A stretch of 39,489 nucleotides of DNA from NCBI GenBank assembly GCA_002179805.1, contig NAVB01000589.1, positions 1 through 39,489 on the forward strand. The letters run 5' to 3'. The position numbers were made by a program, and so were the translations under genes. How positions within the stretch are numbered: position 1 is the first letter of the stretch; each line of letters begins with the position of its first letter. The stretch comes from Acanthamoeba lenticulata (lineage: Eukaryota > Discosea > Longamoebia > Acanthamoebidae). This document shows, piece by piece, positions 5,581 through 34,711 of the stretch. Below the pieces are notes generated by a model. That model saw only the letters and a list, made by a program, of their open reading frames with translations. It searched no databases and was not told the origin of the DNA.

Positions 5581-7456
5581 TCAAGCCAGCTTGGCGATGT
5601 CCTCGTAGGCGACACCCTTGACCAACTCGCCAGAGCCGCGCAGCTCGATCGTGGCGCAGAACTTGTCCACGTCGATGGTTTTCAGCGTGGCGCGCTCGCC
5701 CCGGTGCTCGCCGTTCACCACCAGCACCTTGCCCTCGAGCGCCGGCAGCACTGCACACCAGCAAATGAATAAAGGAAGATGGATAAAACGCAGGAAATTA
5801 ATCAATTAAAATAAATAAATAAAATAAAAATTACATGCGTATGTGCGTGGTGCATGTGCGCGTGTGTGCGTGTGTGCGTACCGGTCTCGAGGAATTCCTG
5901 GTCGAGCCGGAGGACGTCGCCGCCCTGGAGCATGCGGACCTGGCCCACGTAGCGCCCGTCGACTTCCTCGATGACGCCCTTCTGGTTGTAATACTTGCCG
6001 CCGCCGACGGTCTTGTGCTTGACCTTGACCACGATCCCCTCCGCCAGCCAATAGTCCGTTCGCTTCGCCTTTGCCTTCATCTTTTCCTTCTCCTTCAGCA
6101 TCTTCTCCTGCTCCTCCTTCTCGCGCCTCTCGCGTTCGAGCCGCTCGCGTTCGAGTCGCTGCTTGCGCCGCTCCTCCTGCAGCATGATCTCCTCCACGGC
6201 CGTCAGCGGCCGCGCAGGCGCCGGTGCCGACCCCGCCCGCCGCGCTGACGACGACTCGCGCTCGTCCCGCTCGGCGCCGCTCGACGTCGTCGTGGTTGTT
6301 GAAGTTGTCGTCGTCGTCGCTGTGGCGTCCCACCGGCTGCCGCGCGGGCGCTTGAACTCGCGCCGGTGATCGGCCCCGTCTTGGTCCTCCTCCCTCCTGC
6401 TGCTCCTCCTCTTGTCGTCGACGTCGTTGCCATCATCGTCGTCGTTGTCGTGACGATGGCGTCGGTCGTGGTCCTCTGCCTTGCGCTTCTGTCTGGCCTG
6501 CGTCGTCTCTTCGCCATCATCGCCATCAACATCAACGTCGTGAGGGTCTTTCTCTGCGTCGGCCTTGACCGAGGCAAGCAGCGGCGCTGGCGGCTTGCCG
6601 ATCTTGGACGCGCCAAGCGAGAACGCGATCTTCACGCCCTCGAGCTTGACCGGCTCCCCTGCTTGTTGCTGTTGTTGCTGCTGACGCGACTCAGCGTCGT
6701 CGCCGTTGCTGTCGTCGGCGGTAGCGACGTCCTCTTCCTCACCGCCGCCCAAGGCCTCGCGCTGGCGGCGGGCCTCCTCGAGCTGCTTCTCGATGCGCAG
6801 GCGCTCGCGCTCTTCCTCGTCGACATCGGCCTTCTTGCGCCGCTCGAGCGCCTTCTGTCGCGCGATGGTCTCGGGGTCGCGGTCGATGTAGGCCAAGAAC
6901 CAGCCTTTGGGCGTCTCGTCGACGGTGGCCTTGCCGGTGCGGCCGAGGTACTTCACAAACTCAGTGAGCGACGTCCACTTGGTGGCGTTCATGTGGAGAT
7001 GGTGCCGATCGCGAATCAGCTCGGCGTAGACCATGTTCGCGTGCACACGCTTCGTGCCGTGCCTACAGGCAGCAAAAAGAGCAAATTAATAATGATTAAA
7101 GGAAACACGATGAAGCGTCGCTGATGGGGTACCTGTGACGAAGATGGCGAATGAAGCTTTCCTCAAATTCGGCTGAAAAGCTATCGAGGAACTTGTTTGG
7201 GTTATCGGAGAAGATCGCCATCTGGCGCTGGTGCGATTCGGAACTCGTGTGGCACTGCAGAGAGGCAAATGCGGTGAGATGAAGCAACGACCAGCATCAC
7301 AAACGGAGGGGGGGGGGTAGTAAAAACCTTGAAACCGTTTTCATCTCGGCATTGCTTCTGGCACATCTGGCAATACCAACGCAGCTTCTGCAAACCCTTG
7401 GCCTTGATGCGATTGGCAATGGCCTTGGGCGTCAGGAAGCCATCGCTCTTGCCCAT
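5581..7456 (-). CDS. KIN17: KIN17 DNA/RNA-binding protein
   Basis: Four exons, 7328-7456, 7133-7254, 5882-7062 and 5581-5750, total 1602 nt and encode 533 aa. KIN17 is a nuclear nucleic-acid-binding protein tied to the DNA-damage response, replication and splicing. The start at 7456 gives MGKSDGFLTPKAIANRIK, matching the family N-terminus, so the upstream in-frame ATG at 7504 was not used. A C2H2-type zinc finger is visible: C29-x2-C32-x12-H45-x5-H51. It is followed by the KIN17 winged-helix region, with GTKRVHANMVYAEL, HMNATKW and VDETPKGWFLAYIDRDPE. The C-terminus has the tandem SH3-like part, with AEGIVVKVKHKTVG, KGVIEEVDGRYVGQVRM and the ending YEDIAKLA. The middle is expanded by low-complexity charged segments (poly-Q, D/E runs, R/S/D-rich, T-repeats). 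This makes the protein about 140 aa longer than the human form of 393 aa. Identification is secure. Confidence 0.97.
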
Positions 7457-7557: not shown

Positions 7558-10002
7558 TCAGCCTCGGTTGGTGATGGAGACGCTCAGGCCGTGGGGCCGC
7601 AGGGTCACAGCGGGGATGGCCAACACACGCGAGCCTTCCACGAGCCGGACTAGGTTGTGGATGAGGGCGGGGATGGGGGCAAATATGAGAAGATGATTGA
7701 GGACGAGGGTGTGGACGGACTACCAACCTTGGAAGTGGCGGACGATGGCGGCCAGCAGCACGCGCGCCTCCATGAGGGCGAAGTTGCGCCCAATGCAACT
7801 GCCAAAAGGAAGAAAGGGATCAAACAACACATATTATCACCAATTGAAAACAAATATAAAATAAAAATTAATAAAGAACAAATAACGATGTTGCACCTGC
7901 GCAGGCCGCCGCTGAAGGGGAGGTAGGCAAAAGCGTGGCGGGCCTTGGCGTTCTCCTTGCTGAACCGCTCGGGATCGAACCGCTCCGGGTCGGGCCACAG
8001 CGCCGGATCTCGGTGGATCAGGTACGGCACAACCGTCACCTCGGTCTGCACTCGCGCCTCGCGTGAGTGCTTCCTGTGAGGCCACTCGGGGAAGAGGGCA
8101 GCGAGAGACGCACGCCGCTCGGGATCGTGTACGGGCCGATGCGATTGTCCTGCAGCGCGCGCCGCACAAAGCCCGGCTGGGGCGGGTAGAGCCGCATGGA
8201 CTAACACGCGACCAATTAGAAATGATTTTTGAGTATTGTTTTTAAAATTCGAAAGATGTACCTCGCTGAGGACCATGTCGAGGTAGGTCAGCCGAGGCAG
8301 GTCGGCGGCAGCGGGTACGCGGGCGTCGCCCATGACTGGGACGAGCTCGCGGACCAGCGTGGCCTCGACGTCAGCGTGCTGGGCCAGCAGGTAGAGCGTC
8401 CACGACAGCGCGATGCTCGTCGTCTCGTGTCCCGCAAACTATTGGTGAAAACGATAACGACGATAAAGACGATGATGTTGAAGAGCTGAACTGATACTCT
8501 TCAACGCACCATGAACGTCATGACCTCCTCCATGATCTGCTGGTCGCTGAAGCCCTGTCCGTCCTCGTCGTCCTTGGCCTCGAGTAAAAGGTCGAGCAGG
8601 TCTCGTCTGCCGCCTCCGGCGCCCCGCTGTGCGCCATCGACGTCGTCCTTGTCCCGCTCGTCCGCCTGCCTCCGGCGCCGGGCGATGATATCGTACACGA
8701 GCCGCTGGAGCTTGTCCACATTGGCCGCGAACTTGCGGCCGGTGGGCGTGCAGCGGCAGTAGAGCCAATTGGGCAGCGAGAAAAAGTCGTACGACCTGCG
8801 GAGAGTGTGGACCAGTACGCGCGCAGTCAGCGCCCGGACGTCCCGGGCCAAGCGGCGCCCGCTACGTACCTCTCCTCGATGGCCGACAGGACAAACTCAA
8901 AGGCCTCCACCACGTCGTCGCTCGCCGCGTCGCCTGCAAACCCACCCATGCGTGAGCCTGGGCGGCCGCGGCCCTGGACAGAAAAAACGTACCTTCCGGG
9001 TTGAAGCTTACGCCAAAGGCGGCCAGCCCGATGATGTCCAGCGACGTCTGCGTATGCGCGTACGTTGTGTGGCCGATCAGCGTTGTCCCAGAAAGGGGCG
9101 AGGAAGGACCGTGGCACGGACCTTCTTGAGCTCGAGGCCGAGGTCTTCTACGCGGAAGGAGGCGCTCTCCTTGGCGGCGATGTTGGCTTGCCACCGCCCC
9201 ACGAGCCGCTCGGAGGCGTCGGCAAAGATCGGATAGAGTTCGTGCAGGTTCTTCGAGTAGAAGGCCGGCGACATGAGCCGTCTGCAGCACAACGTTACCA
9301 TCCTGTGAGTAGGAGGACTCAGAGCACAAACAGCGCGGTGTGGGCCATACCTCTTGCGCCGCCAGGTATCGCCGTAGCTCATAAGGATGCTGTTCCCAAG
9401 AAAGGGCTTGAACTCCTTGTCGTAGCCCTGCACAGCCACAACAAAAACATATTTTCATATTTAAAATAAATCAAATAATGCAAGGAAAAAAGGTCGCGCC
9501 TTGCAGTAAAAGTTCACGTCGGTCTGGCCGTTGAGGAGGTTCTTCACCAGTTCGGGGTCGGTCAAGAACAGTGTCGGAGTCGTGCTCTCGTACCACACTC
9601 GGAAGACGGGACCGTACTTGGCCCGCCATTGCAGGATCGTGTCCAATATCTTGCCCTACGGCGCATTCAGCACCACAAGTTCGGCGGAAGTGTGCGTTTG
9701 GTGTGCGTGCTGTACCTCTTCACCTGCGCCCTGCATCTCGAGGAGGTTGTGGCCCAGCAGCGGATGCGGCTTGGGCCCGGGGAACTGCGCCATCGCCCCG
9801 GCATAGTGTCGCCACGGCACCAGGTACCACTTTATGGCGCCGCCAGGGCAGATGGGGCTGTGAGTGTCGAGGCGGTGGCGCCCACAAGTGCACAAGCAAC
9901 CGTGTAGGAAAAAGAGGGTAAAACACGTACGAAGAAGATGAAATAGGAGATGAGGCCTACCACCGCACAGGCGACCAATTGCAAGAGGATGAGAAGGTCC
10001 AT
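7558..10002 (-). CDS. Cytochrome P450 (microsomal type)
   Basis: Thirteen exons: 9931-10002, 9716-9829, 9500-9655, 9351-9427, 9122-9281, 8993-9047, 8870-8933, 8510-8795, 8262-8438, 8114-8200, 7897-8045, 7728-7798 and 7558-7649. They total 1560 nt, giving 519 aa, a normal P450 length. Exon 1 encodes a 24-residue membrane anchor starting MDLLILLQLVACAVVG, followed by a proline-rich hinge with FPGPKPHPLLGH. The helix-C motif is WRRKR, the helix-I motif AGHETTS is at about residues 330-336, the ExxR motif (ESMR) is at 387-390, PERF follows, and the haem loop FSGGLRSCIG places the thiolate Cys near 467. Together these predict an ER-bound haem monooxygenase. The substrate cannot be read from sequence. 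The third intron begins with GC instead of GT (see findings). The gene is divergent from the small gene at 10202 across 199 bp. Confidence 0.95.
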
Positions 10003-12910: not shown

Positions 12911-15900
12911 CTACCAGAGAGCAAGCAAGTGGGTGAGCAGAGCCTGCACGCATGCCATCACGGCGCTCTCCGCGCCCCTCGATGCCGACGAGAACTCCGG
13001 GCACGAGTTGAACGGCGCCTCGCTGCACGAGCACGGCCAGCACGACGTCACGTCCACCAAAGGCTCAGCCTCGTCCGCCTGCCTGGCCGACGCGCTGCGG
13101 CAGTCGCGGAAGGAGGACTGGGCCTCGACGAGGAAGAAGCTTCCGTTGCGTCCTTCCGCCGTCTGGAGGCCCGCGCCGGGGCAAGGGTAGACCGTCCACT
13201 CGGACTGCCACATGGTGATGCCCACAGTGACCTCACCAGTATCCATGCTCTGGCCCTGGCCGTCGACGAGGCTGAAGCGGCCCGACTGGTGGATCTCTCC
13301 GCGCGACAGGTAGACGCCCGCCACGCCCTGGATGCCCGTGAAGCCGTTGGCGTCCTGGGCGGCGTCGCCTCCGAGGAGCACGACGTTGCCGCCCAGCTTC
13401 AACGTGGAGAGCGACCTGATTTCGATCAGGGCCATGCCTCCCCAGCCTGTTTGTGGGCGCGGTCGGGACGTGAGAAAAGCGAGCATTGACAATGAGAGCA
13501 GATCATCAGGATGATTGACTGTCGTACCCAGGGAGAAGGTGGCATTGGAGGAGAGGATGCCGCCGGAGCCGCCAGCGATGGTCACGTCGCCCTCAATGGT
13601 GACAGACGACCCGCTGTGGGCCTCGAGGCTGGCTTGATAGCCGTTGTTGGGCTCGTTCAAGTTGTTGACCTGGCGAGCATTGTGGCCCAGTGTGAGGTCG
13701 CCCGTGACGTGCAGCTTCGAGTAACCATACACCTCGACCGTGGTCTCGTCGTTGTCGAAATAGCCACCGCGCTTGGCCGGTTCGTTGTCGTTAGCTTCAT
13801 GACGGTCGCGGAGGAGGCGAGCCGTGTGCTCAGAAACAGGCATCTTTCTCTCCTTCTGCTCCTGTCGTTCCTGCCTCAGCAACAAGATGTCCGAGTTGGA
13901 GTAGTTGGTCGATGAGTTGCCCATCACGCCGCACAAGAGCGCCATGTTGCCACCGACGGTCAGCGACGAAACGTCCAGCACGGCCGCGGTCACCACCAAC
14001 GGGGTGCCGCCGTTCGACGAGGAGCCGTCGGTCATGGCGGCGTCGACGTTGCCGCCGTTGCCGCCAGTGAGTGCGATATCACCGCCGACGGTCATGTGCG
14101 CGTTGCTGAGGACGAGCAGCATGGGCGCATAGCCGTCGCTGAAGCCCTCACCAGGGCTGCCGGTGCCGTCAACCACATCGCCGCCATTGCCGTTGGCCAA
14201 CGTGACAGAACCTGTCATTGTTGTGGTTGTGGTGGTGGCACGGTGAGGTCGCTTATGCGTGGAACATTACATTCATTACAAATAAAGGATTATTTATACA
14301 AAAAAAAACACTTAATAAAAAGAATGATATCAATAAAAGAACAGCAACACGGACCAGCAATGTCGAGGGTGGAGTGGCCGACAACCCACACAAGCGATGA
14401 CCCGCCGTCGCCCGCGTCGCTGGAGCCGCCCGTAACAGAGCTGCCGTTGGCGCTCATGATCGACACCGATCCGCCCACCGAAACCGACCCGCCGTGGGCA
14501 ACTGAAGAAAGTTTGTTGTGAGTATTTGAACAACTCAAGAAGACGACGTCATGATAAGATTTGGAATGTTGGTTGTTTCTGTTGGAAGGGGGGGAAAGTA
14601 CCAAGGAACATGTTGGAGCCGGTGTCTTGGCCGTTACCGTCCACGCTGCCGCCGGGCGTGCAGCTCTCAATGATGACATCGCCGCCAATGACCACGTTGC
14701 CCTCCCACGCGTTCTCCACAATGAACCCGCCAGACGTCTCAGTCTGAGCGAGCACAAGAATAGCGTCGTTGCACTGACCGCCCTGATCTGGAGGACGGAT
14801 TGACACGAGCACGATCGTACACGCTTCATGTCAATCTCTCTCGCTCGCTCAGAGGAGAAAGGGACAAGGAAACGACGCACAGCCGGAGTAGTTGGACGAA
14901 CTGGCCATGCCGCCGGCGATGGTCACGCTGCCGCCCACGCGCATGTCCAGCTTGCCCGTGCCGGGCATCGCGATGGGGATTCCTTCAAAGGGGATGGGCA
15001 CATCGCCACGCTGAGCGTTGTTGCGCTCAGGCGATGATCCCGAGTCCCCAATGGCAATGAACAGGGGCATAACGTTGGTTCCCTGTCGAAGATGGAGCGT
15101 ATGAGCCAAGGCTTGGGCAAGAAGGATTGCCGCAGCGGTTGTCACAAGGAGAGACGTACGACATAGAAAGCGGCGTGGTTGGCCTGTCCGCCGATCATGC
15201 CCTTGCCAGCAGAGCCGCTGGCGATCAAAATGTCTCCGCCCACGGTCAGGCTGCCGCCCAACCCGAAATAGCCCAGTGCCAAACCTGGTCATATGCAGCA
15301 CCATCATCAATATTGTTGTGTTTTGTGTGTTTGGTGTGTGGCTGAGAATCTGGGGGATGAACGTACCACCATCGCCGCCCATGCCGTACTGATCGTTGGA
15401 GTTGCCGCCGTGGCCGCCCAGCACGATGAGGTTGCCCCCGATCACCGCATCCACGCTGCCGATGAGGGCGAAGAGCGCCGGCTTGGCATTTCCGCCGTAC
15501 CAGCCATCGTCATTGCCCGCAGTCACATTGGCGTCACCGCCGTTGCCTGACTGAACCAGCACGTCCTTGGCCACGGCCACCACGCTGTCCAGGCCCATGG
15601 AGAACTGCGTCGTGCTGGCCTGGGGGCCGGATGATCTATCGCTTGAAAAGCTGCCGCCGTTGGTGGTGCTGTTGCCCGCATGGCCGCCGCGAACGGTGAT
15701 GCTGGACTCGGCCGAGCCGTTAACCAGCAGCGCTGTCTTGGCCAAGTCGATGACGGCGTAGCCCGCCATGTAGCCGTTGTTACCGTCGTCACGGAGGCCC
15801 GTGGCAGAACCAGACTCGACCGTAAGAGAGCCTGCGCATGATCGTGTCAATTTGACAAGCTTGAGTAAGAGAGAGAGAGAGAGAGACAACGTACCACCCA

Positions 15901-16923
15901 CAGCGAACACGCTCGATGCCAATTCCATCATCACCGTAATGCCCGCAAAGGTGGCTTGCGACAGGGCCATGAAGACGCTGTAGCCAGAGGAGATGATTGC
16001 CTGGCCGGTGGTGCCGATGAAGGTGTCGCCAGAGCGAACCTCGACATCGCCGCCCACGCTCAGTAGGCCGCCATAGAGCTCAAGAAAGACACCCCTCGTG
16101 CCCTCAACCCCGGTGATGGGGAGCAGGCTTTCGGTGAGGTTGGCGGAAGTGATGCGCAGGTCGCCCGCCACTTGGAGCGCTGCAATCTGGACGCTCAGAC
16201 TTGCGGAACCAGAGTCTCCGCGTTTGTTGGCCAGAGGAGTGGAGAGGAGGCCGGCGATGAGGATGACGTCGCCGTTGATGGTTACGTTCGACATACTCCG
16301 CACCTTCAGTTCGACTCCACTGACCGCCGAAGTTAGTTCAAGCGAGCCGTCAATCAACACCTCGCAGTCATTGAAATTCACTATCGGGTCGAAGTCGTTG
16401 GACAAGGACAAGCCATGCGCCAAGGTCATGGTCGCTCCGTCGCAGTAGAGCTCGGCAAGCTGGTCGCTGGCGGCCAGATTGAGCGAGCCGGTGGACGAGA
16501 ACGTGGCGGCTTCTTGCACGTTTAGGGAGGTCGTGTTGAGCGAGCCTGCATCGCACAAAGAAATCAAAATTCAATCAAAAGCTCATTGATTAAAGAAAGG
16601 GTAAAGGGCAAAGAGAAGAACCTACCTGCGACAGAGAGCGACGCCCTGTCGCTCACGGTAATGGAATAGCCCTCGGCGGAGAAGCCCATTGGGATGGTCA
16701 CCACCACGTTGGCGCCGTCCATTTCAACGTAGTCTTCCTCGGTCGGGACGCCGTTGTTGCCGTTGCCACTGCATCCGGTCCAGGTCGAGTTGTCGTTCCA
16801 AGCGCCTCCGCCCGCCACGGCAGTGCACGTCAACCGGCTTCCGGCCTCGACGGCGGGCATCCACCAGGCGCTGGCCACGAGCATAAGCACGGCCGTGATG
16901 ATCAACAGCTGTGGTGCCTTCAT
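12911..16923 (-). CDS. Secreted repeat-rich predicted beta-solenoid surface protein, copy A
   Basis: Nine exons: 16626-16923, 15895-16545, 15367-15831, 15160-15284, 14881-15082, 14602-14787, 14355-14501, 13528-14211 and 12911-13446. They total 3294 nt, giving 1,097 aa. A signal peptide is clear (MKAPQLLIITAVLMLVASAW). The mature start has GGGAWNDNSTWTGC and VPTEEDYVEMDGANVVVTIP, a pattern typical of bacterial and eukaryotic beta-helix surface proteins. The body is built of tens of imperfect strand-turn units of the form L-x-V-G-G-D-V/I-x-x-x-x-G, rich in Gly, Asn, Ser and Thr, with several N-glycosylation sequons. A Cys-rich segment (CWPCSCSEAPFNSCPEF), small residues and the hydrophobic end AVMACVQALLTHLLALW suggest a GPI-anchor signal. 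An adhesive or cyst/cell-surface role is inference only. The start at 16923 was chosen by alignment to copy B. Most introns are phase 1. Confidence 0.8.
12926..13214. repeat. Near-identical 289-bp tract shared with 17720-18008 (copy A member)
   Basis: By eye, this stretch differs from 17720-18008 at one position only (C at 13076, T at 17870) and has exactly the same length. The sequence on both sides diverges at once, including the last codons of the two proteins. It lies in the final exon and encodes the Cys-rich and pre-tail segment. Confidence 0.85.
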
Positions 16924-17039
16924 CATCTTTCTCCTGGGTCGCAAGGAGGAAGGGAAGCCACGAAAGAAGAAGCGCTTTGACTCGTTTGTGATGTGTGCGG
17001 TTTGGGTGATGAGTGAAGTTGGGTGGTGCCGAGTCAGCT

Positions 17040-17194
17040 TTTATGCCCCAACGCTTGGTGCTGGATTGGTCGCTGCGCGGCCATTCATCACTCGGTGACT
17101 CGCACCTCGTAAACTGTCGCCACTGACCACAATGAGTGGTAGCCGAGTTCATTAAACCAGGTGTTGTTCGCCTCTTATCAACCAATCAGCAGGC
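17040..17194 (-). promoter_or_regulatory. Promoter of copy A: TATA-like, CCAAT box and distal CAACCAAT element
   Basis: On the minus strand, GGGGCATAAA (17040-17049) lies about 117 nt before the ATG, and a CCAAT box (17065-17069) lies 20 nt further upstream. A distal 16-mer, CAACCAATCAGCAGGC (plus strand, 17179-17194), is also present upstream of copy B. The TATA-CCAAT spacing is identical in both genes, which supports real promoter function. Confidence 0.6.
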
Positions 17195-17259
17195 AACGAC
17201 GGAGTTGCCCTTTTGTAGAAGTTTTTTTTTACAATTTAAAAATAAAAAACATACCAACA

Positions 17260-17480
17260 AGGCGCAGAGTCCGGCAGTGAGCGGTGCTTTCCGCTCTCTG
17301 CGACGCCGACGAGAACTCCAGAAAGGAGTTGCAGGGCGTATCGCTTCGGGCCCTGCGGACGACGAAACGAAGCATGATGACGAAGGCATGAGCGTTCTGA
17401 GTGAAGGCTGATCGCGTTGGAGGCAAGCATGCCGCCCTAGACACGTCGCCCTCGATGGTGGCCGACGCCGGGGCTTGGGA
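17260..17480 (-). pseudogene. Relic of the beta-solenoid family (exon 8/9 fragments)
   Basis: Between copies A and B, the minus strand carries decayed pieces of the same gene. FLEFSSASQRAESTAHC near 17275-17330 matches the FNSCPEFSSASRGAESAV tail of the intact copies, and SATIEGDV near 17440-17470 matches SVTIEGDV in exon 8. The order is preserved but the intervening sequence is lost. Nucleotide similarity around GACGCCGACGAGAACTCC is strong. There is no intact reading frame across it. Confidence 0.7.
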
Positions 17481-17695
17481 TAGGAGGCATCTCAAAACTC
17501 ACTGTCAGCGAGACGCCACCGTTGGCTGAGCCGGTTGAACCTACTTGTTGACAACGCCAGTGATCACAGCTGTCGCTAGTGCCGAGGCCACCGGACAGGA
17601 ATTCCTGCTATTGATCACATCAGCTGAACCAGTTTATGAATATCTTAACAAGACGGTACAAGTTTTCGTCTTCCTTTCGAGGGTCTACACAAACA

Positions 17696-20600
17696 CTAGC
17701 AGGCAGAGTAGAGGAGGTGCAAGTGGGTGAGCAGAGCCTGCACGCATGCCATCACGGCGCTCTCCGCGCCCCTCGATGCCGACGAGAACTCCGGGCACGA
17801 GTTGAACGGCGCCTCGCTGCACGAGCACGGCCAGCACGACGTCACGTCCACCAAAGGCTCAGCCTCGTCTGCCTGCCTGGCCGACGCGCTGCGGCAGTCG
17901 CGGAAGGAGGACTGGGCCTCGACGAGGAAGAAGCTTCCGTTGCGTCCTTCCGCCGTCTGGAGGCCCGCGCCGGGGCAAGGGTAGACCGTCCACTCGGACT
18001 GCCACATGTAAATGCCCACCGTCTCCTTGCCGGTCTCATTGACGCGCTGACCCTGACCGTCGACGAGGCTGAAGCGGCCCGACTGGTGGATCTCTCCGCC
18101 CTCCAAGTAGACGCTCGCCATGCCCTGGATGCCCGTGAAGCCGTTGGCGTTCTGGGCGGCGTCACCGCCTTGGAGCGCGACGTTGCCGCCGAGCCTCAGG
18201 GTCGACACCAGCTGGACTTCGATCAAGGCCATACCTCCCCCGTCTGTGCGTGTTCCCGTCGCCACCGGTGAGCAAGCCAGCCTCGACCATGTCACACAGA
18301 GGGGGCGGAGAGGGATTGGGCGTACTCAGGCTGAAGCTGGCGTTGGAGGAGAGGATGCCGCCGGCGCCGCCGGTGATGGCCACATCGCCCTCAATGGTGA
18401 CCGACGCGGCGCCTCCGACCAGGAGGCTGCTCTGGAAACCGCCAGCGGGTGGGTTGAGGTTGTTGACCTGCCGGGCGTGGTGCGCCAGGCTGAGGTCGCC
18501 CGCGACATGCAGCTTCGAGGACGAGTAGACCTCCACGGCTGTCTTGTCGTTGTTGAAGTAGCCACCGCGCTTGGCCGCCGGGGTCTCTGAGTCCGCCTTG
18601 GCCGCTCGGCAGTCGCGGAGGAGGCTGGCCGTGTGCTCAGGCAGAGGAATCTGTCTCTCCTTCGGCTGCTCGGGCTGCTGGTTCCTGGTCAGGACGGACT
18701 CGTTTATGGACGAGTTGGTCGAAGAGTTGCCGAAGGCGCCGCACAAGAGCGCCATGTTGCCACCGACGGTCAGCGACGACACGTCGATCACGGCCGCGGT
18801 CGCCCCCAACGGGACGCCACCGTTGGCGGAGGAACCAGAGGTCATGGCGGCGTCGACTTTGCCGCCATTTCCGCCGGTGAGTGCGATGTCACCGCCGACG
18901 ATCATGTGCGCGTTGCTGAGGACGAGCAGCATGGGCGAATAGCCGTCGCTGAAGCCATTGCCGGGGCTACCGGTGCCATCAATCACATCGCCGCCATTGC
19001 CGTTGGTCAACGTGAGCGAACCTGTTGTGTCGTGGTTGTGGTGAGTGAGCTGATGAAGTTATTAAAATGTTAACCTTTTCAAGTTCTAAATGAAAATATG
19101 TTTGATAGGAAACTAAAATTATAGGTCCGAACCAGCAATGTCGAGCGTAGCGTGACCCAAGACCCACGCAAGGGACGATCCGCCATTGCCCGCGTTGTTG
19201 GAGCCGCCCGTGACAGAGCTGCCGTTGGCGCTGGTGATCGACACCGACCCGCCCACCGAAACCGACCCGCCGTAGACAACTGAGGTCAATGTGGATGAGT
19301 TAGAACAAAAGCTTGCTTGGTAGCTGTGGTTGTTGGAGCGGAGGATGTGTACCAAGGAGCATGTTGGTGTCGCCGTTCTGGCCACTGCCGCCCACGCTGC
19401 CGCCGGGCATGCAGCTCTCAATGATGACATCGCCGCCGATGACCACGTTACCCTCCCACGCGTTCTCCACAATGAACCCGCCAGACATCGCGTACGAGAG
19501 CACCTGAATAGCGTCGATGCACTGACCGCCTTGGTCTGGAGGACGCAATCCGTTGTCAATCACTCTGTATCCTGCGGCCAGGGAAGCGACGACGTACAAT
19601 TCGAGTAGTTGGACGAGCCGGCCACGCCGCCGGCGATGGTCACGCTGCCCCCAACGCGCAGGTCCAGCTTGCCCGTGCCGGGCACGGAGATGGGCGGCCC
19701 TCCGGGGCCAACCGATCCGCGGATGGGCTTTTCGTCGCGGGCGTTGACGTTGGGAATGAGAATGGGAGGGGTAGGGCCGCCTGATTGGCTCAGCGCCGCA
19801 AGGCTGGTCCCCTACGACAAGAGGAGGCGAGCAAGCGAGAGAGGTTTGAGAGAATTCAGGTGCATGAGGAAAAGTGAAGGGGCGATGACGTACGACATAG
19901 AAGCCGGCGTGGTAGGCCGACCCGCCCACCTGACCCGTGCCAGCAGAGCCGCTGGCGATCAAAATGTCTCCGCCCACGGTCAGGCTGCCGCCCAATCCGA
20001 GATAGCCCGTCGCCATACCTGATCATATACCGCGCCGTCATCAGTATTTGGGTCGGGCTGCCGTTGGAGAGAAGGGAAATACGCACCACCACTACCGGCA
20101 ATGCCGTACTTGTCGTTGGTGTTACCGCCGTGGCCGCCCAGCACGATGAGGTTGCCCCCGATCACCGCATCCACGCCGCCAGCGAGACGGAAGAACGCCG
20201 GCTTGGCATTCCCGCCATTCCAGCCATCGTCATTGCCCGCAGTCACGTTGGCATCACCGCCGTTGCCCGACTGGACCAGCACGTCCTTGCCCACAGCCAC
20301 CACGCTGTCCAGGCCCATGATGAACTGCGTCGTGCCCGCGTAGGGGCCGTTGAGGTTGAAGCTGCCGCCGTTGGTGGTGCTGTTGCCCGAGTGGCCGCCG
20401 CGCACGGTGATGCCTGACTCGTCCGAGCCGTTGACCAGCAGCGCGGTTCTGATCATGTTGATCATGGCGTCACCCGCAGCGTAGCCGTTGTTGTTGCCAT
20501 CGTGGCGAAGACCGGTGACGGAGCCCGACTCAACAGTGAGCGAGCCTGGTTTGTGTTGACAAGTGCCCAAAGAGACAGGTCAGCCAACCGCTGCTTGACG

Positions 20601-21621
20601 AAGAGGGTCAGAGAAACATCGTACCACCAACGACCACCACACTCTGTCCAGTTTCGAACAGCACCATCGCGCCCTGGTAAGAGCCGTAATACATGGCCCC
20701 CAAGACGTCGCCGTCCGTGACGAGGTAAGCATTGCCTGTGTTGCCGACGACGGCGTCGCCCGAGCGCACCTCGACGCTGCCGCCCACGCTCAGCAGGCCG
20801 GCGCTCAACTGGATGGTGGCGTCCCTTGAGCCCACCACCTCGACGGTGGCGTTTTCGGGGGTGGAGGCCGAGGTGATGCACAGGTCGCCTCCAACCTGGA
20901 GCGAGGCGCCGGAGATGGACAAGCCCAGGCTCGAGCTGGGGACGCCGCGTTTATCAATGAGGGCTATGACGCCTCCATTGAGGACGACGTCGCCGTTGAC
21001 GGTCACGTTCGCCAGCTGCTGCAACGCCATGTAGCAACCGCTGAAAGCTGAAGTGAGCTCGAGAGAGCCGTCGATCGACGCCTCGCAGTTCTGGAAAGTC
21101 GCCTGCGAGCCGTAGTCGTCGTTGGACAAGGACACGCCGTGCGCGAAGGTCATGGTTGAATCCACACAGTAGAGACTGGTCGGTTGGCCATTGATGTTGG
21201 TCAGGTTGAGCGTGCCGGTCGACGACACCATGGCCGCTTGTTGCACGTTCAAGCTGGCAGTGCGGAGCGAGCCTGTCGGCAACAAGATTTTAATTGTTGA
21301 GGGCTTTACAACCTCGATGCAAGCAAGATGGGGCATACCTCCAGCGATGATGAGCGACGCCCTGTCATCAACACGTACAATGTAGCCCTCGGCGGAGAAG
21401 CCCGAAGGAATGGTCACCTCCACGCCTGCGCCCTCGATCTCAACATAGTCATGCTCGGTCGGGACGCCGTTGTTGCCGTTGTCGCTGCATCCGGTCCAGG
21501 TCGAGTTGTCGTTCCACGCGCCTCCTCCCGCCACGCACGTCAACGCCTCGACGGCGGGCATCCACCAGGCGCTGGCCACCAGCACCAGCAGGGCCGTCAT
21601 TACAAACATCGACGGCTTCAT
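17696..21621 (-). CDS. Secreted repeat-rich predicted beta-solenoid surface protein, copy B
   Basis: Nine exons with the same order and phases as copy A: 21339-21621, 20625-21272, 20087-20545, 19894-20018, 19598-19811, 19353-19535, 19133-19279, 18326-19021 and 17696-18243. They total 3303 nt, giving 1,100 aa. The signal peptide is MKPSMFVMTALLVLVASAW. The N-terminal GGGAWNDNSTWTGC block, the long series of VGG-D-V/I solenoid units and the Cys-rich C-terminus all match copy A. The extreme C-terminus differs (LTHLHLLYSAC, not LTHLLALW), although it is still hydrophobic. Exon 5 carries a proline-rich insert (SQSGGPTPPILIPNV) replacing the shorter region of copy A. Tandem duplication is certain from the shared exon structure. 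Function is unknown, and surface display is inferred from the signal peptide and tail. Confidence 0.8.
17720..18008. repeat. Near-identical 289-bp tract shared with 12926-13214 (copy B member)
   Basis: Counterpart of the tract in copy A. It is bounded by a sharp drop in similarity at both ends: on the right, at the codons after the conserved Trp-Gln-Ser-Glu-Trp segment, and on the left, inside the last few codons. Confidence 0.85.
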
Positions 21622-22454: not shown

Positions 22455-22935
22455 CCCCTGCCCACCATTGCACTTTCAGCGCTTCTTGATGCTGAAGAAA
22501 AATCCACTCACACGAGCACGGCGAGCACGACGTCACGTCCACCAACGGCTCGGCCTCATCTCTCTCTGTGCGAGTGTAGTGGACGAGAGCACGGCAGCAA
22601 ATAGAGGGTGGTCGTACCCAGAGCTGCTGGTGATGGTCACGTCGCCTTCGATGGTGGCCAACGCCAGAGATAACCGGCAAAAGGGTTGATCGGGGGAGGA
22701 TGATGCGCGATGGTGAGGTCGCCCTTGAAGTGCAGTTTCGAGGACGTCCACGCCTCCACGCTGGTCTCATCGCTTCCGGAGCGCTTGGCCGGCGCGCTCG
22801 CCGGGAGGGGCCACGCGCTCATCGACAGGAATCGTCTTTCTCTGATGCTGCTCCTGCTTCTTAACATTGAACAAGGGGAAGGTGGAGTTGGTCGATGAGT
22901 TGCCGAAGGCGCCGCATACGGGCAGGGGACCCAAC
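22455..22935 (-). pseudogene. Relic of the beta-solenoid family (exon 8/9 fragments)
   Basis: A second decayed copy lies upstream of copy B. In minus-strand order it keeps pieces matching AFGNSSTNS (near 22900), SSKLHVAGDLSLAHH as SKLHFKGDLTIAHH (near 22710-22745), TIEGDV (near 22640), and the VDVTSCWPCSCSEA segment as VDVTSCSPCSCEW (near 22505-22550). Frames shift between the pieces and large internal parts are missing. With the relic at 17260 this implies at least four units in the ancestral tandem array. Confidence 0.75.
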
Positions 22936-27741: not shown

Positions 27742-28034
27742 GTGGCTAAATTTAAGTAAAGCGATTAAATCACCAACAGATTGTGTGCCAATCTGTCCAC
27801 GCTACTCAATTGAGAAGGTCGACTTCGGCTCCTGCATGTGCGAGAAAAACCTGCGGTTGGTCCAAGAAGCATGTCGTCAAGATGAGGTGGGATTTGGTAA
27901 ATCCTACGAAATGACGACAAGCAGTCAAGCTTCAGCTCGTTGGCTTCCCTGGTCAACGAAGCGATCACCACCCTTCAGCTGTGGAAAATGGAGACGACTT
28001 TGGTGAAGACTTCTTTCTCTCTGCGTGATCCAGT
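27742..28034. other. Gap upstream of the Zn2Cys6 gene
   Basis: About 290 bp between the 3' end of the acyl-CoA oxidase gene and the start of the transcription-factor gene, both on the minus strand. It should hold the oxidase 3' UTR and the regulator promoter. Reading frames exist on both strands but none shows domain signal or convincing start context, so none is called. Confidence 0.4.
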
Positions 28035-31000
28035 TTAGAGCTTGGCGGGCACACTGTCGACACCCCGGATGAGCGGGGCCACGCTCTCTTCGTAGTAGAA
28101 CGGGCGGCCATTCGTGTTGGTCTGGGGCGCGTTCCTCACGATCTGCGCAGTGCACCAGCCGAGGTGAGCAGCTCTCATCAGAAACAGTTGATGGTGCTGA
28201 TGATGATGATGATGAACAAACCTCAAAGTACTTGCGGTAGATGTCGCCGTCGTAGGCGCCAAAGGGCGCCTTGAGCACAAAGTCGGGGATGGCCAGCGCA
28301 TCGGTCAGCAGCACCGCGTCTCGGCGCACCTCGCGGCACAGCTTGAGGTGAGCCTTGCGCACCAGCGCCGCTGCCTCGCCGGTGAAGTAGCCGTATTCGA
28401 GGAAAAGGGCCGCCTCGGCGTGGACGCGGTCGAGCGCAAAGAGGAGGCTCAGCCGGCCGAGCGTCGAGGCCAAGCCCTTCTTCGGGGAGGACCCGCCGCT
28501 TTTGGCCTCTTCTACCTCCTGCTGGGCCACCTGGTGGAAGAAGTTGACCACAAAATACCAGGTGTGCACGCGCGAGCACGAGACGAGCGCCATCAGGTTG
28601 TCGTTCCAGGCCTCCTCCAGGTCCTTGCCCGCCGCCACGTCAGCCTGACGTCAGCACCCCCCTTCCCCGGTGAGTTTACTCCAAGGCAATCTCGGCTCAC
28701 GGACGCGGGCTTCACCTGCAGCTGCTGCGCGACGGTGGTGATGTGCTTGGCGGCGAGCCAGCGGAGGGCGGCCACGAGCGAGGCCGCCGAGGGCACGTCT
28801 CCGTCGACGAGCGAGGGACGCCACGACGCCGCGTCGGCGGCCAGGATCTGTGGGGCCTCGGACAGGTAGGCCACCGAGCCCGTCAGCTGCTTGCCCCGCG
28901 CGGCCTTTTGCAGCGAGGCCATGAGCTGCCTCGCGCTCTGCTGGGCCAGCACGATGTTGTCTCCGCCTGAGGCCGCATCGGCAACAACGCGAATGAGCCA
29001 AGGCAAGGGCAGAGAAAACGGATGAGGGGGGGGGAAGGCGTGTTTGCGTACCGCCCGTGGTGATGACGCCGTGGTCCATGATGAGCCCCGGGATCGAGTT
29101 GTAGGCCGAGTAGCCGTGGCCGCCCATGCACCGCCGGCAGGTCTCGAGCGCCGTACTGGCCCACCAACCGAGCCACGCCTGCCCACACGCAAAGATCAAA
29201 AATAAATAAATCATTAAAATATAGTATTAATAAAACAAAATAAAATAAAATAAACAAATAAAATAAAATAAAATAAAATAAAATAAAATAAAATAAAAGG
29301 CGCACCTTGAAGCCAGCCGAGATGTTGTGGTAGTCGGGAACGAGGCTCAGGAAGCGCTTGGGGTCAACGTCCTGCCGCTCGAGCTCGTGGAACCAGTCGT
29401 GGCCTACCTTGCGCGCGAGGAAGTGGAGCGCGTACACGCCGGCCAGCAGCGGCATGAGGTGATACTGGTGCGACTGGTAGTCCAGGATCTGCTGGTCCTT
29501 CGCGCCCTGCCGCCGCACGGCGCCGTAGCGTATGGCGATGGTCACCGCGTGGCCCACAACGTCCGCGCTGTCCTCCATCTACGCAACACATGCCAGGAAT
29601 TTGAGTTACGCGCGATGGTGGGAGCGGTTCGTGCTTGACATACCACAACCAAGCGCTCTCCGATGAGGGTGTTGTAGGCCATTGCCGGGTTGGGCGCGGC
29701 CGTGAACACGCCCTGACGCGATGGAGTCAGTCAGCCGTCAAGTCACGCCAACAGTGGGTGTATGGCGATGGAGGTCAACCTCGGGCGAGAGCTGCGCCCA
29801 CTTCATGAGCATGTGGTCCAGCGGGACGCGCACTTGGGTGAACTGGATCCACCCGTTGTCCAGCCTGCCCGCCCCACACGTCGTGGCGCACACATGAGTC
29901 ACTCTCGTGCGTGGTGATAGGCCAACAAACCAACGCGGGAGGGGGGGGGGAAGGGGCGACGTACCCAGCGCGGCCCATCTTGGCCCCGATGTCGCCGCAG
30001 GTCACGCCCGGCATCAGTGTCCCGTCGACGAGGCTCCGGAGCTGCACGATGAACCTGCGGTGGCGGCCACGTCAACAAAAAAACAGAGAAGGAAAAAGGC
30101 CAACGGCAGCGGTGCGCACCAGTTGAGCCCGAGGTCCTGGCCGTCGACGATGAGGCGAGCGATGGCCACGGTATGCGTGGCCGTCTCGCCGGCCATGCCG
30201 ATCCACCACTTGGTCGACGTCAGCGTGGGCCTGAAAAAATTATGCCAGAATTAGCGATAATAAGAACGGAAATTAAAGAAAAAAAAGATCTGGGCCAATC
30301 GTGGACAAGACGAAACGACAAACAAGTCACGAGGACATACGAGTGAATAACGAAGGTGCGGGTGGCCTTGTCGTAGGTAGCTGTGGTCTCGATGCCCCGC
30401 AAAAACGACGAGTGCCCCAGCTCGGTCATGGCAAAGCAGCCCAGCACGCGCGCCGCTTCGATATCATCCTGTCCAAACGTATTCGTGTTATTTAATAATT
30501 ATAAGTTTATAATATGATAATCAAAACAAAACAACACAAAAACAAAACGAAGCGATAAGACCAGGTACCTTCCACTTGAGCCACTGGTCCTTGGTGCCAT
30601 GCGTGTAAATGGACTCCCTGGGATGGTTGTTGCAATGATGTTGAGTACACTAACAAACAGATGAGGGAAGCGACGCACTTGAAGAGGGTGCAGTGGACGT
30701 AGAGTCTCATGGAGAGGGTGCGATCGTAGGAGGCGATCACCTGGTGCGTAGAATGGGGCGTTGACCGCGTCAGAAAAAGAAACGGTCAGCTTAGCAGCCC
30801 GGCTCGGGAGGGGGCGGACGCACACGCAAGAAGGCACGGCGCTCTTCCTCGCTCGAAAACTGCTGCATCATCCGCAACGCTCGGCGGACTTGAGCCATGC
30901 ACCTGCCGACGCGGCCCAGCGGGGGTGAGCCGAGTGAGCTCACCAACACACACATGGATGCAAGCTGTAGCGCACTCACTTTTGGCGAGCCTCGGGACGA

Positions 31001-31332: not shown

Positions 31333-32966
31333 TCATGGGTTGCTGGGCGCTGTTGGGGCGGGGAACGGGCTGTTGCTCCGCGGCTCGGCTTCCGCCAGGG
31401 TGGTGTTCTCCTGATAAGCCCCACCATTGCCATAAAACGAAGCCAGAATCTCTGCGGCCTTGGCTTGCACTTCTCCTTTGCTTGCTTGGCGCAGCTGACG
31501 CAGCTTGGTCAGGCCACCCGCATCGTTGACCAGCTCCACAAACAGATTGCATCCCCCAGCCGGCGTGGTGCGGGCGCCCGTCTGGAGTACGTCCTCGAGT
31601 GTTTGCAGGGCCAACACCACCAGCTTGTCGTCTGTCGGTGCTGGGGAGAGGAAGTTGCACATGGCGTTGATGAGCCCTTGGTTCACCAAGTAGTGCACTT
31701 GCTCAGGGTCGCCGCCGCTGGTGGCGTGGTGAAGGGCATGAACGGCCTCCTCCAGAACGTCCAAATGCTGGCCATGCGATGTGTGGACGACATGAATGAG
31801 TGTTGGGATGAGGTCAGCGTCGATGACCATCTGGATCTGCGCTCGATTGTCGGCCATGATGCTGGAAATGACCCAGCACGCCTCCTTGCGCAAGCTCTTC
31901 TTTGGATGACGTAGTAGGCTGTGCAGGCACGGCAGGACCCCACAGTTGAGAAGCAGTTGCGTTTGGTCATCATTTCCTGTGGCTATGTTGCCCACAGTGC
32001 GGAGGGCTGGGATCCGGATTGAAGTACTCTCATGCCTGTTTCGTTGCAACGCGTTACGTTGATTCATGTTCTAAACAGAAATATTTAAAAGAATTAAAAT
32101 TTAAAATTTTAAATTTAAATAATAAGATTTGTTTTTTTTGGGGGCCGCACATGAGGAGTTCGACCAGACGTCGACAGACTCCGGCGTCGAGCACGGCCTG
32201 AATGTGGTCGTGGGGACCGTCGGAGAGGTAGGCCAGAGCCCAGCAGGCGTCGGCGACTGTTTCGTCATCGCTCGAGTCGATCAGGCGAGCCAGCGTGAGG
32301 AGTGCCGGCCGCACAACCTCGAAGTTAGGCTGCGGTTCGCCGCGACACAGGTTGGCGATGGCCCATGCGCCAGTGCGGAGGAACGATGGGCTGGCCGTGG
32401 TCTCCGCAAGGTTCGTCAAGAGCGGCGACATGACGTTATTGTGGAGAACCAAGTCGCGGCACTCACACGATTCGCCCGCCAGGTTGCCCAAGGCCCACAA
32501 GGCCTGGAGAGTGGACTATTAAGTGTTGCGACTTCTCGGTGATGATGGTGGTATGAACCTGTTCGCGAACGTTCTCATGCGGCGAGGCTGCAAGCGTGTG
32601 CACGAGTACTGGCACGGCGCCCGCCTCGATGACCGTGCGGACGTGGTGCGACGAGCCTGAGGCAATGACGTTGGTGAGCGCCCAGGCCACCTCGAAGTGG
32701 AGCGCTGGTCCATTTTGGTCGTTGGTGAGGATTTGCACAAAGTGCTGCACAACACCAGCGGCCAACACTTGGTCGAGGGGCGTGTGGCCGAGCGAGAGCA
32801 GCTCGCACAACTCGGTCGCGGCAGAAAGCTGCTGCTGCGGGTTGTTACTGCACAGCTCTGCGGCCAGTGAAAGCAGCATCTCTTGTGTAACTGCTGGGTC
32901 TTGAGTGCCACTTTGAGTTTGTTGCAAGCTCGTCTTCTTCATTCTTGCAGTTGCAAACTTGAGCAA
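31333..32966 (-). CDS. Importin-alpha-like armadillo protein without an IBB domain
   Basis: Three exons, 32559-32966, 32151-32503 and 31333-32035, total 1464 nt and encode 487 aa (479 aa from the second Met, at 32942). Importin-alpha recognises classical nuclear localisation signals through a groove lined by Trp and Asn in successive armadillo repeats. The repeats are evident: EVAWALTNVIAS, ALWALGNLAGES, TGAWAIANLCRG, ACWALAYLSDG, PALRTVGNIATG and EACWVISSIMAD, followed by repeats 7-10 and an acidic/Ser-Pro tail. What is missing is the Arg/Lys-rich importin-beta-binding segment of about 60 residues. The protein begins with a short Gln/Thr-rich stretch and enters the first repeat by about residue 25. 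The next gene ends only 23 bp upstream, leaving no room for an IBB-coding exon nearby. Protein identity is secure; transport competence is uncertain. Confidence 0.92.
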
Positions 32967-32989: not shown

Positions 32990-34711
32990 TTACTCGCGTG
33001 CCTCCCATTTGAGGATGAAGCCCTCGCCTTGATAGTCAGCGTCAGAAGTGAAGCTCACGAAAGCTGCAGGAGACTCCACCACGATCTCCATCGGGCGCGT
33101 CACTTGGCCATGCAGCACAGCGACAAGAGCTCCTTCACCTTGCGCTCCCTCGAAGATGCGCAGCTTGTCGAAATACCTCTCCGTGTCAAGGAACCGCGAA
33201 CACGATGCGACGTGCATTACGCGGAGGAACGATTGACCACCCGCGTTCAAGGTTGTTTTCGTAGTGCCGAAGCGAGATGACGCCCTCGTGCGTCGTTTGT
33301 AATTCATCCAATCGCCTGGCAGGAGGTACATCCACCGGCTGCATGGGCAGGTCGATAGGCGTCATTGCTGCAACAACAGAAAGAAGATATTTAGCGAGTT
33401 GAATTCAATTGCCAGGAGGAGTTTGTGCGTACGTGAAGAGAGATGGGTAATGGACGCGTTGTAGATCACGCCGATCTCAGCAAAGTAGCCACTTAACGCG
33501 GGAGGCTGAGACAACGCCCAGAGGAAGTCCGTGCGGTTCCATTGGGTGCTCTCATAGCTTCCACCCACGACGCTATTGTTGGCGTCCAGCTCGAGCCAGT
33601 ACGTATAGCTCAGAATCTCCTGAGCGAGCCGAGGATCAACTGCGACCCACATCGGCATGATCTCGGTCGTAAACCAGATTGAGGTCTTGACCTTGACCTC
33701 CTTGACCGCCTTCGGTGACGCTCCAGACGACGGAAGACGGGCGTCAAGGGTCGTGTAGTTGTATTTCCAGACTGGTTGATTCCACACCTCGATCGAGCGG
33801 TCGCGGTCAATAACAAACCCGGTGTGGGAACCGCCAACCAGATTGGACAGAATCACGTGGAAGGCGCCAGCGTTGATATCTGCGCACTCGGGATTGTCTC
33901 TGCGTGTTCATGTGAATTCTTATTGCATTGTTCTTTTATTGTGTACCTGGAGAACGTACGATTTGGAGGGGTCGGTGTGAAGATCTGAAGTACAGCGCTC
34001 TCCCAACCAAGACGATGATGCTATATTGTACTCTGCCACGAAATAGATCAAGAGCGCCTTGATATCACTTGAGGCAAAGGAAATGGTGATGTTGTCTGGA
34101 TTGACCAGCACAACTGGTTTCGGCTGCACGGGGAAGGCCAACGACGCACTAGCCCATCCATGGCACATGCCTGAATGGTGTGTGCGTGTGTGTGGGCAGA
34201 TGAGAACAACAGGAATAGAACAGGAGATAAGCCAAGCATACCTTCCCACTTGGGATCGTCTGGTGACGTTCTCTGCCATTCACTCTTGACTGTTGGGTAG
34301 TCATATCTTTGCTTGAAGATGTCATATTTCTCTGTTTGGAAGCGAGTTAAAAAGAGCACACTGTCTTTGGAGGGGCCACTTACCTGCTGGCGAGAGTAGG
34401 GCGATATCATCTGGGGTCATCTTCTTCAGCTCGGCAAGAATATAAACGTTGTAGTTGAAGTCTTGCGGACCTTTTGACCAAACTCTGTGGGCAATACCAG
34501 ATTGGTAGGACGGCCAGTAGCTGTCACTCCATGGTGTATACAAGAGTTCACCATCTGTTGGCAACTTGTCCCATTTGAACTCCAGACCAGTGGCTAAATG
34601 TGTGGGGTCATTGCGGTCGTTCCAAGCGCTGGCATGCACTACAGCAACCAAGCCCAGCAGCAGAGCAACGAGGGCTGCAAGTCTTCTTTCTTGCATTGAA
34701 GTGCTTGGCAC
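32990..34711 (-). CDS. Secreted transglutaminase-elicitor family protein with C-terminal CUB-like domain (apparent frameshift)
   Basis: Five exons: 34384-34711, 34242-34331, 33960-34170, 33433-33899 and 32990-33367. A signal peptide is clear (MQERRLAALVALLLGLVAVV, from the second Met at 34696). The core matches the oomycete transglutaminase elicitor family (GP42-like), which cross-links Gln to Lys. It has CHGWA with Cys near residue 142, SSDIKALLIYF, the ECADINAGAFHVILSNLVG segment with His near 224, and DRDRSIEVWNQPVW with a candidate Asp, giving a plausible Cys-His-Asp triad. The last exon encodes a CUB-like domain: SLRHYENNLERGW, then FLDTERYFDKLRIFEG, then VESPAAFVSFTSDADYQGEGF. Between the first and second of these pieces (about 33190-33200) the frame shifts by one base without room for an intron, so the protein as read would stop early. 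This may be a sequencing error, an allele or a decaying gene. Confidence 0.8.

What the first reader, a model, noticed from the sequence alone, without database searches (positions are those of the whole stretch)
12911..21621. Tandem family of large secreted beta-solenoid-like surface proteins with conserved nine-exon structure
Two ~1,100-aa proteins share signal peptide, an N-terminal GGGAWNDNSTWTGC block, tens of imperfect VGG-D-V/I strand-turn units, a Cys-rich segment and a hydrophobic tail suggestive of GPI anchoring. The unit resembles bacterial adhesin and polysaccharide-binding beta-helices, yet each gene has eight introns at matching places, so the family is long resident in a eukaryote. 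I know of no named family with this exact layout. It is a candidate undescribed amoebal adhesin, coat or prey-binding system.
Basis: partly seen in the sequence, partly recalled or inferred. Interest (0 to 1): 0.75.

Follow-up and report, generated by a model that had tools for sequence, protein, structure and literature searches.

The report
Undescribed amoebal beta-helix surface proteins
Two neighbouring genes in an Acanthamoeba-like amoeba belong to a so far unnamed family of large secreted rod-shaped proteins that probably coat the cell surface and may help the amoeba stick to things.

The parts
12911..16926 (-). gene A, 9 exons, 1098 aa; exons 16626-16926, 15895-16545, 15367-15831, 15160-15284, 14881-15082, 14602-14787, 14355-14501, 13528-14211, 12911-13446
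   Evidence: spliced model, GT-AG, phases matched to gene B; intact on second haplotype
17696..21621 (-). gene B, 9 exons, 1100 aa; exons 21339-21621, 20625-21272, 20087-20545, 19894-20018, 19598-19811, 19353-19535, 19133-19279, 18326-19021, 17696-18243
   Evidence: spliced model, GT-AG, phases matched to gene A; intact on second haplotype
16843..16926 (-). gene A N-terminal signal-peptide-like segment (residues 1-28)
   Evidence: by inspection of the translation; no predictor available
21544..21621 (-). gene B N-terminal signal-peptide-like segment (residues 1-26)
   Evidence: by inspection of the translation
16771..16812 (-). gene A N-cap block GGGAWNDNSTWTGC
   Evidence: C, G, W, C, P, D of the N-cap invariant in 7 of 7 members aligned, P0001 and P0003 left out; C, W, C, P, D invariant in P0001-P0006
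21487..21528 (-). gene B N-cap block GGGAWNDNSTWTGC
13202..16770 (-). gene A beta-helix region (introns included)
   Evidence: 17 strand-turn-strand motifs; model of 12914-14209 shows strand triplets
17996..21486 (-). gene B beta-helix region (introns included)
   Evidence: 17 strand-turn-strand motifs; 72.9% identical to A; not modelled itself
13001..13201 (-). gene A six-Cys C-terminal module (EWTVYPC...FRDC...CxPCxC...CP)
   Evidence: six Cys invariant in 8 of 8 members aligned, P0001 left out
17795..17995 (-). gene B six-Cys C-terminal module
12914..13000 (-). gene A hydrophobic C-terminal tail, possible GPI signal
   Evidence: hydropathy
17699..17794 (-). gene B weaker hydrophobic C-terminal tail, possible GPI signal
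   Evidence: hydropathy
17282..17467 (-). remnant of a third array copy between A and B
   Evidence: repeat families D12 and D14; blastn
22511..22916 (-). remnant of a fourth array copy upstream of B (pieces of exons 8-9)
   Evidence: tblastn, blastn

Best explanation
A and B encode secreted extracellular rods: a signal peptide, an N-cap with two cysteines around a Trp, one long parallel (probably right-handed) beta-helix, a six-cysteine C-terminal cap, then a hydrophobic tail (after a Ser/Pro stalk in three larger relatives) that most likely directs GPI attachment. The rod would stand on the cell surface of acanthamoebid amoebae and act without catalysis, as part of the surface coat and/or as a glycan-binding adhesin, as autotransporter passengers and yeast Awp adhesins do with the same fold class. 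Shown: gene structure, constraint on both haplotypes, family members, conserved caps. Supported by models: beta-helix. Inferred: disulfides, GPI anchoring, surface location, binding role, absence of enzyme activity.
Against: Foldseek gives no significant hit (0 of 72 and 0 of 83 matches at E<=0.001), and model confidence is moderate, from 9 and 6 sequences. Tails of C, P0003 and P0006 are weak (18-residue means 0.81, 0.79, 0.97) and many internal windows equal them; B is intermediate. P0001 and P0004 end right after the Cys module. No expression, localisation or binding data exist for A or B. The strict motif count of P0004 and P0006 does not exceed the shuffle maximum, though a Gly-rich unit does. 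In alignment A1 a few charged columns inside the solenoid are invariant (for example D434, R467, D618, D690, E723 of P0001), so an active site is not excluded.
Confidence: 0.5

Rival explanations
1. A cyst-wall protein that works like Jonah: a secreted beta-helix that binds cellulose in the cyst wall, not membrane anchored.
Against: No CAA domain: NCBIfam scan of B and P0001 empty at E<=1; TIGR04215 has 58 matches in this genome, none on C480, C1489 or C277. Two relatives are transcribed in an amoeba with no observed cysts. ACA1_244890 is named in no main text of the held library; supplements could not be read.
Confidence: 0.25
2. A polysaccharide lyase or glycoside hydrolase of the pectin-lyase-like fold, secreted to digest food polysaccharide.
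For: Many aligned chains are such enzymes (PL6 alginate lyases, pectate lyase, pectin methylesterase, GH28).
Against: Pfam at E<=1: no family in A and P0001-P0004, only a sub-threshold Sir1 match in B (C, P0005, P0006 not scanned). Invariant columns are mostly Gly and cap residues; the few charged ones in the four-member alignment form no cluster that I can place, and rung register is uncertain.
Confidence: 0.12
3. A secreted matrix or slime component without membrane anchor or specific ligand.
For: Gly-rich (15-20%); intermediate to weak tails in B, C, P0003, P0006.
Against: Clearly hydrophobic tails in A, P0002, P0005 and Ser/Pro stalks before the tail in P0003, P0005, P0006.
Confidence: 0.1
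4. Gene-model artefact or decaying duplicates.
For: Two remnants in the same array; introns 2 and 8 of A happen to be open and in frame.
Against: Four intact spliced copies on two haplotypes with conserved splice sites and dN/dS below 1; transcribed relatives in MMETSP0439.
Confidence: 0.02

Closest known systems
Jonah lectins (choice-of-anchor A) of Acanthamoeba cyst walls
   Same: secreted amoebal proteins with a beta-helical fold
   Different: no CAA match; the P0002 model shows one continuous helix instead of one or three folds with Thr/Ser-rich spacers; six-Cys C-terminal module and tail; relatives in an amoeba without observed cysts
Autotransporter passenger adhesins (pertactin, Vag8, antigen 43)
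   Different: no translocator match; eukaryotic spliced genes; Cys-containing caps; no sequence similarity found
Candida glabrata Awp1/Awp14 adhesin-like wall proteins
   Different: no sequence match in PDB searches; yeast wall instead of a naked amoeba
Acanthamoeba mannose-binding protein (DUF4114)
   Same: acanthamoebal surface adhesin
   Different: beta-sandwich plus Cys-rich repeats and a transmembrane helix (PMC11934332, passages); no DUF4114 match here
ACA1_244890 (A. castellanii Neff, 'uncharacterized protein')
   Same: a family member, of the gene C type (C is 585/950 identical to its 95%-identical twin P0001)
   Different: its twin P0001 is 31% identical to A and B; no function assigned

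Membership tests
[quoted passage not shown]
   B and P0001 scanned with NCBIfam, 0 families at E<=1; 58 TIGR04215 matches in the genome, 0 on C480, C1489, C277
Jonah / choice-of-anchor A | one or three separate beta-helical folds with Thr/Ser-rich spacers | tested here: inconclusive
   model of P0002 shows one run of strand triplets over about residues 120-936, but confidence is moderate and A/B were modelled only in part
Jonah / choice-of-anchor A | encystation-specific expression, cyst-wall location | not testable with these tools
   no expression data; relatives transcribed in an amoeba with no cysts seen
Parallel beta-helix fold class | stacked rungs of three short strands | tested here: met
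Autotransporter (type Va) | C-terminal beta-barrel translocator | tested here: not met
   no Pfam family in A, only sub-threshold Sir1 in B; C-terminus is a Cys module and tail
Pectin-lyase-like enzymes (PL1, PL3, PL6, GH28, CE8) | curated family match | tested here: not met
   Pfam scans of A, B, P0001-P0004; C, P0005, P0006 not scanned
Pectin-lyase-like enzymes (PL1, PL3, PL6, GH28, CE8) | conserved catalytic residue cluster | tested here: inconclusive
   few charged invariant columns; rung register uncertain
   Pfam scan of A and B at E<=1
GPI-anchored surface protein | signal peptide plus C-terminal hydrophobic signal after a small-residue site | tested here: inconclusive
   18-residue tail means: P0002 1.75, A 1.66, P0005 1.51, B 1.27, P0006 0.97, C 0.81, P0003 0.79; P0001 and P0004 lack a tail; no GPI predictor
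Ice-binding beta-helix | regular TxT array on one face | tested here: not met
   TxT 4 in A and 4 in B, shuffle means 4.2 and 3.9
Acanthamoeba mannose-binding protein | DUF4114 domain | tested here: not met
   Pfam scan of A and B at E<=1

The most novel reading that the evidence does not exclude
An undescribed acanthamoebid family of single beta-helix rods, roughly 10 nm long in the 1000-residue members and perhaps twice that in the 1700-residue ones, held to the trophozoite membrane by a GPI anchor and closed by a new six-cysteine cap, that forms part of the amoeba's surface coat and mediates adhesion: a eukaryotic counterpart of bacterial autotransporter rods that arose without detectable bacterial ancestry. 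(Lengths are estimates from rung counts and a recalled rise of about 0.48 nm per rung.)
Probability: 0.33. Interest if true: 0.62.

Novelty: new variant of a known kind. Interest (0 to 1): 0.42.

Why it matters
In the passages read here the named Acanthamoeba adhesion and wall proteins are the mannose-binding protein and the Jonah, Luke and Leo lectins and laccase. A conserved, tandemly duplicated family of surface rods would be a new handle on adhesion and the trophozoite coat, and its six-Cys cap is a usable signature for finding members in other amoebae.

Tried and rejected
Rejected: Jonah membership; G8, pectin-lyase-like Pfam families and DUF4114; ice binding by TxT arrays; bacterial or viral origin as a supported claim (viral contigs: 26 pattern matches, 0 relatives; genome contigs: 36 pattern matches, 0 relatives; both start from two short exact patterns, so distant relatives could be missed). 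P0007 (PKD-domain protein, E 0.029, 26% identity over 5%) was dropped as chance. P0003 was a hit but is not listed, although it was a row of that query. A first motif definition separated poorly and was rewritten after I had seen the sequence. Alignment A4 (exons as separate rows) was visibly misaligned and not used. The first protein search listed P0001 but missed its 95%-identical twin P0002, so its negatives are weak: absence of A/B orthologues from the Neff annotation is not shown. Family absences from the VIA-align lists are not used as evidence. Literature: 'ACA1_244890' in 0 papers; searches listed no paper that by title or abstract start concerns this family; passages of PMC9283445 do not mention it; supplements could not be read.
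Full report
What is there. On the minus strand lie two tandem genes, A at 12911-16926 and B at 17696-21621. Choosing GT-AG introns by frame and by agreement of the two paralogues gives nine exons each, 1098 and 1100 aa, with eight introns at matching places and phases. The proteins are 784/1076 identical (778/1083 in the four-way alignment).

The genes look real and under constraint. The window is contig C480 of a 48.48 Mb assembly of 1825 contigs. Contig C1489 is the other haplotype: its whole length aligns with window 8025-29237 in three blocks at 92.6-95.6% identity. It carries intact A' and B' with GT-AG at all eight introns in each. Nei-Gojobori dN/dS is 0.57 for A-A', 0.28 for B-B' and 0.51 for A-B, with 0.78 in one 100-column block of A-B. 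So the proteins are constrained, A only loosely.

The array is active. In the alignment of the last exon, the 300 columns at the 3' end hold 6 sites where the two paralogues of a haplotype agree against the other haplotype, 5 that group by allele and 9 others; the other 245 columns hold 0, 38 and 11. This is the pattern of gene conversion after the haplotypes parted. Remnants of two further copies lie at 17282-17467 and about 22511-22916. On C1489 the upstream remnant keeps an open stretch of 80 aa, 85% identical to B.

The family is wider than the window. Searching the genome with B gave 37 matches at E<=0.001: A, B, their alleles, the remnant on C1489, and one new place on C277. Searching with C gave 12 matches at E<=0.01, none on a new contig. 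Gene C (C277, 1004 aa) has six exons. Its introns 1 and 4 sit at the same alignment columns and phase as introns 1 and 7 of A/B; its intron 3 (phase 0) lies about ten columns from intron 4 of A/B (phase 0) in a gappy stretch and may or may not be the same; introns 2 and 5 do not match. C is 28-29% identical to A and B and 585/950 identical to P0001. Protein searches found P0001, then P0002 = ACA1_244890 of A. castellanii Neff, P0003 and P0004, then P0005 and P0006. P0004 and P0006 are labelled Stereomyxa ramosa MMETSP0439. [quoted passage not shown] The members with a named organism are thus all acanthamoebids; P0001, P0003 and P0005 come from contigs without one.

Anatomy. Members have a secretory-type N-terminus by inspection (P0001 looks short), an N-cap with two Cys around a Trp (C, G, W, C, P, D invariant in 7 of 7 aligned, P0001 and P0003 left out; C, W, C, P, D invariant in P0001-P0006), a Gly-rich repeat region, and a C-terminal module whose six Cys are invariant in 8 of 8 aligned (P0001 left out). 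Seven of nine members continue after it; P0001 and P0004 stop there. P0003, P0005 and P0006 put a Ser/Pro-rich stretch before the tail. Mean hydropathy of the last 18 residues is 1.75 in P0002, 1.66 in A, 1.51 in P0005, 1.27 in B, 0.97 in P0006, 0.81 in C and 0.79 in P0003. So a GPI signal is plausible for A and its relatives, doubtful for some, and shown for none.

Repeat. The strict strand-turn-strand motif occurs 17 times in A and in B (1000 shuffles: maxima 6 and 5), 8 in C, 11 in P0001, 10 in P0002, 8 in P0003, 10 in P0005, but 4 in P0004 and 7 in P0006, where shuffles reach 7. In A and B many successive motifs lie 33-52 residues apart. In P0003-P0006 a Gly-rich unit is enriched (36-39 against maxima of 10-16 in 200 shuffles), with GG motifs often 19-25 residues apart, which could be one or two per rung; in A and B this unit is not enriched (4 and 6; maxima 9 and 11). 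The rung signature has drifted between subfamilies.

Known families. Pfam at E<=1: none in A, P0001, P0002, P0003, P0004; B has only a sub-threshold Sir1 match (C, P0005 and P0006 not scanned). NCBIfam: none for B and P0001, the two scanned. PHROGs: none in 4 of 4 members of A1. PDB sequences: none for the A1 profile or the Cys-module profile. The nearest amoebal analogue is the Jonah lectin family (PMC6541295 and PMC11423589, passages read). Its CAA model has 58 matches in this genome, none on C480, C1489 or C277, so A, B and C are not Jonah proteins by that test, though they share the fold class.

How it most likely works. The parts fit a stiff extracellular rod with cysteine-containing ends, tethered by a lipid anchor, acting by shape and surface rather than by catalysis: invariant positions are mostly Gly and cap residues, with a few charged columns in the smaller alignment that leave an active site possible. 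Two members come from a transcriptome of an amoeba in which no cysts were seen, which favours a trophozoite role over a purely cyst-wall one; absence of observed cysts is not proof. Coat, adhesin or both cannot be separated here. The steps from rod to surface to binding are inference.

Novelty. Searches listed no paper that by title or abstract start concerns this family. The protein family and its six-Cys cap appear undescribed; surface beta-helices as a kind are well known. Hence 'new variant of a known kind', with moderate interest.

Noticed in passing
window 33365-33907 (-): ORF matching Transglutaminase elicitor (PF16683, E 2.1e-18), a family recalled from oomycetes, in an amoebal genome.
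   Followed up: no
window 13447-13527 and 15832-15894: Introns 8 and 2 of gene A are multiples of three without a stop, so retention would only insert 27 or 21 aa; in gene B the same introns are 82 and 79 nt.
   Followed up: partly
window 12925-13224 and 17719-18018: These 3' stretches of A and B are 99% identical over 300 nt, and six sites of the 3' end agree within haplotypes against the other haplotype: gene conversion.
   Followed up: yes
own genome, e.g. C121, C437, C660, C1688: Choice-of-anchor A (Jonah-type) domains are abundant: 58 exon-level matches over many contigs, second haplotypes probably included.
   Followed up: no
window 5802-7085, 7650-8438, 27925-29226, 31333-32070: Neighbouring ORFs look ordinary: KIN17-like, cytochrome P450, acyl-CoA oxidase, armadillo-repeat (importin-alpha-like, by Arm_3).
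   Followed up: no
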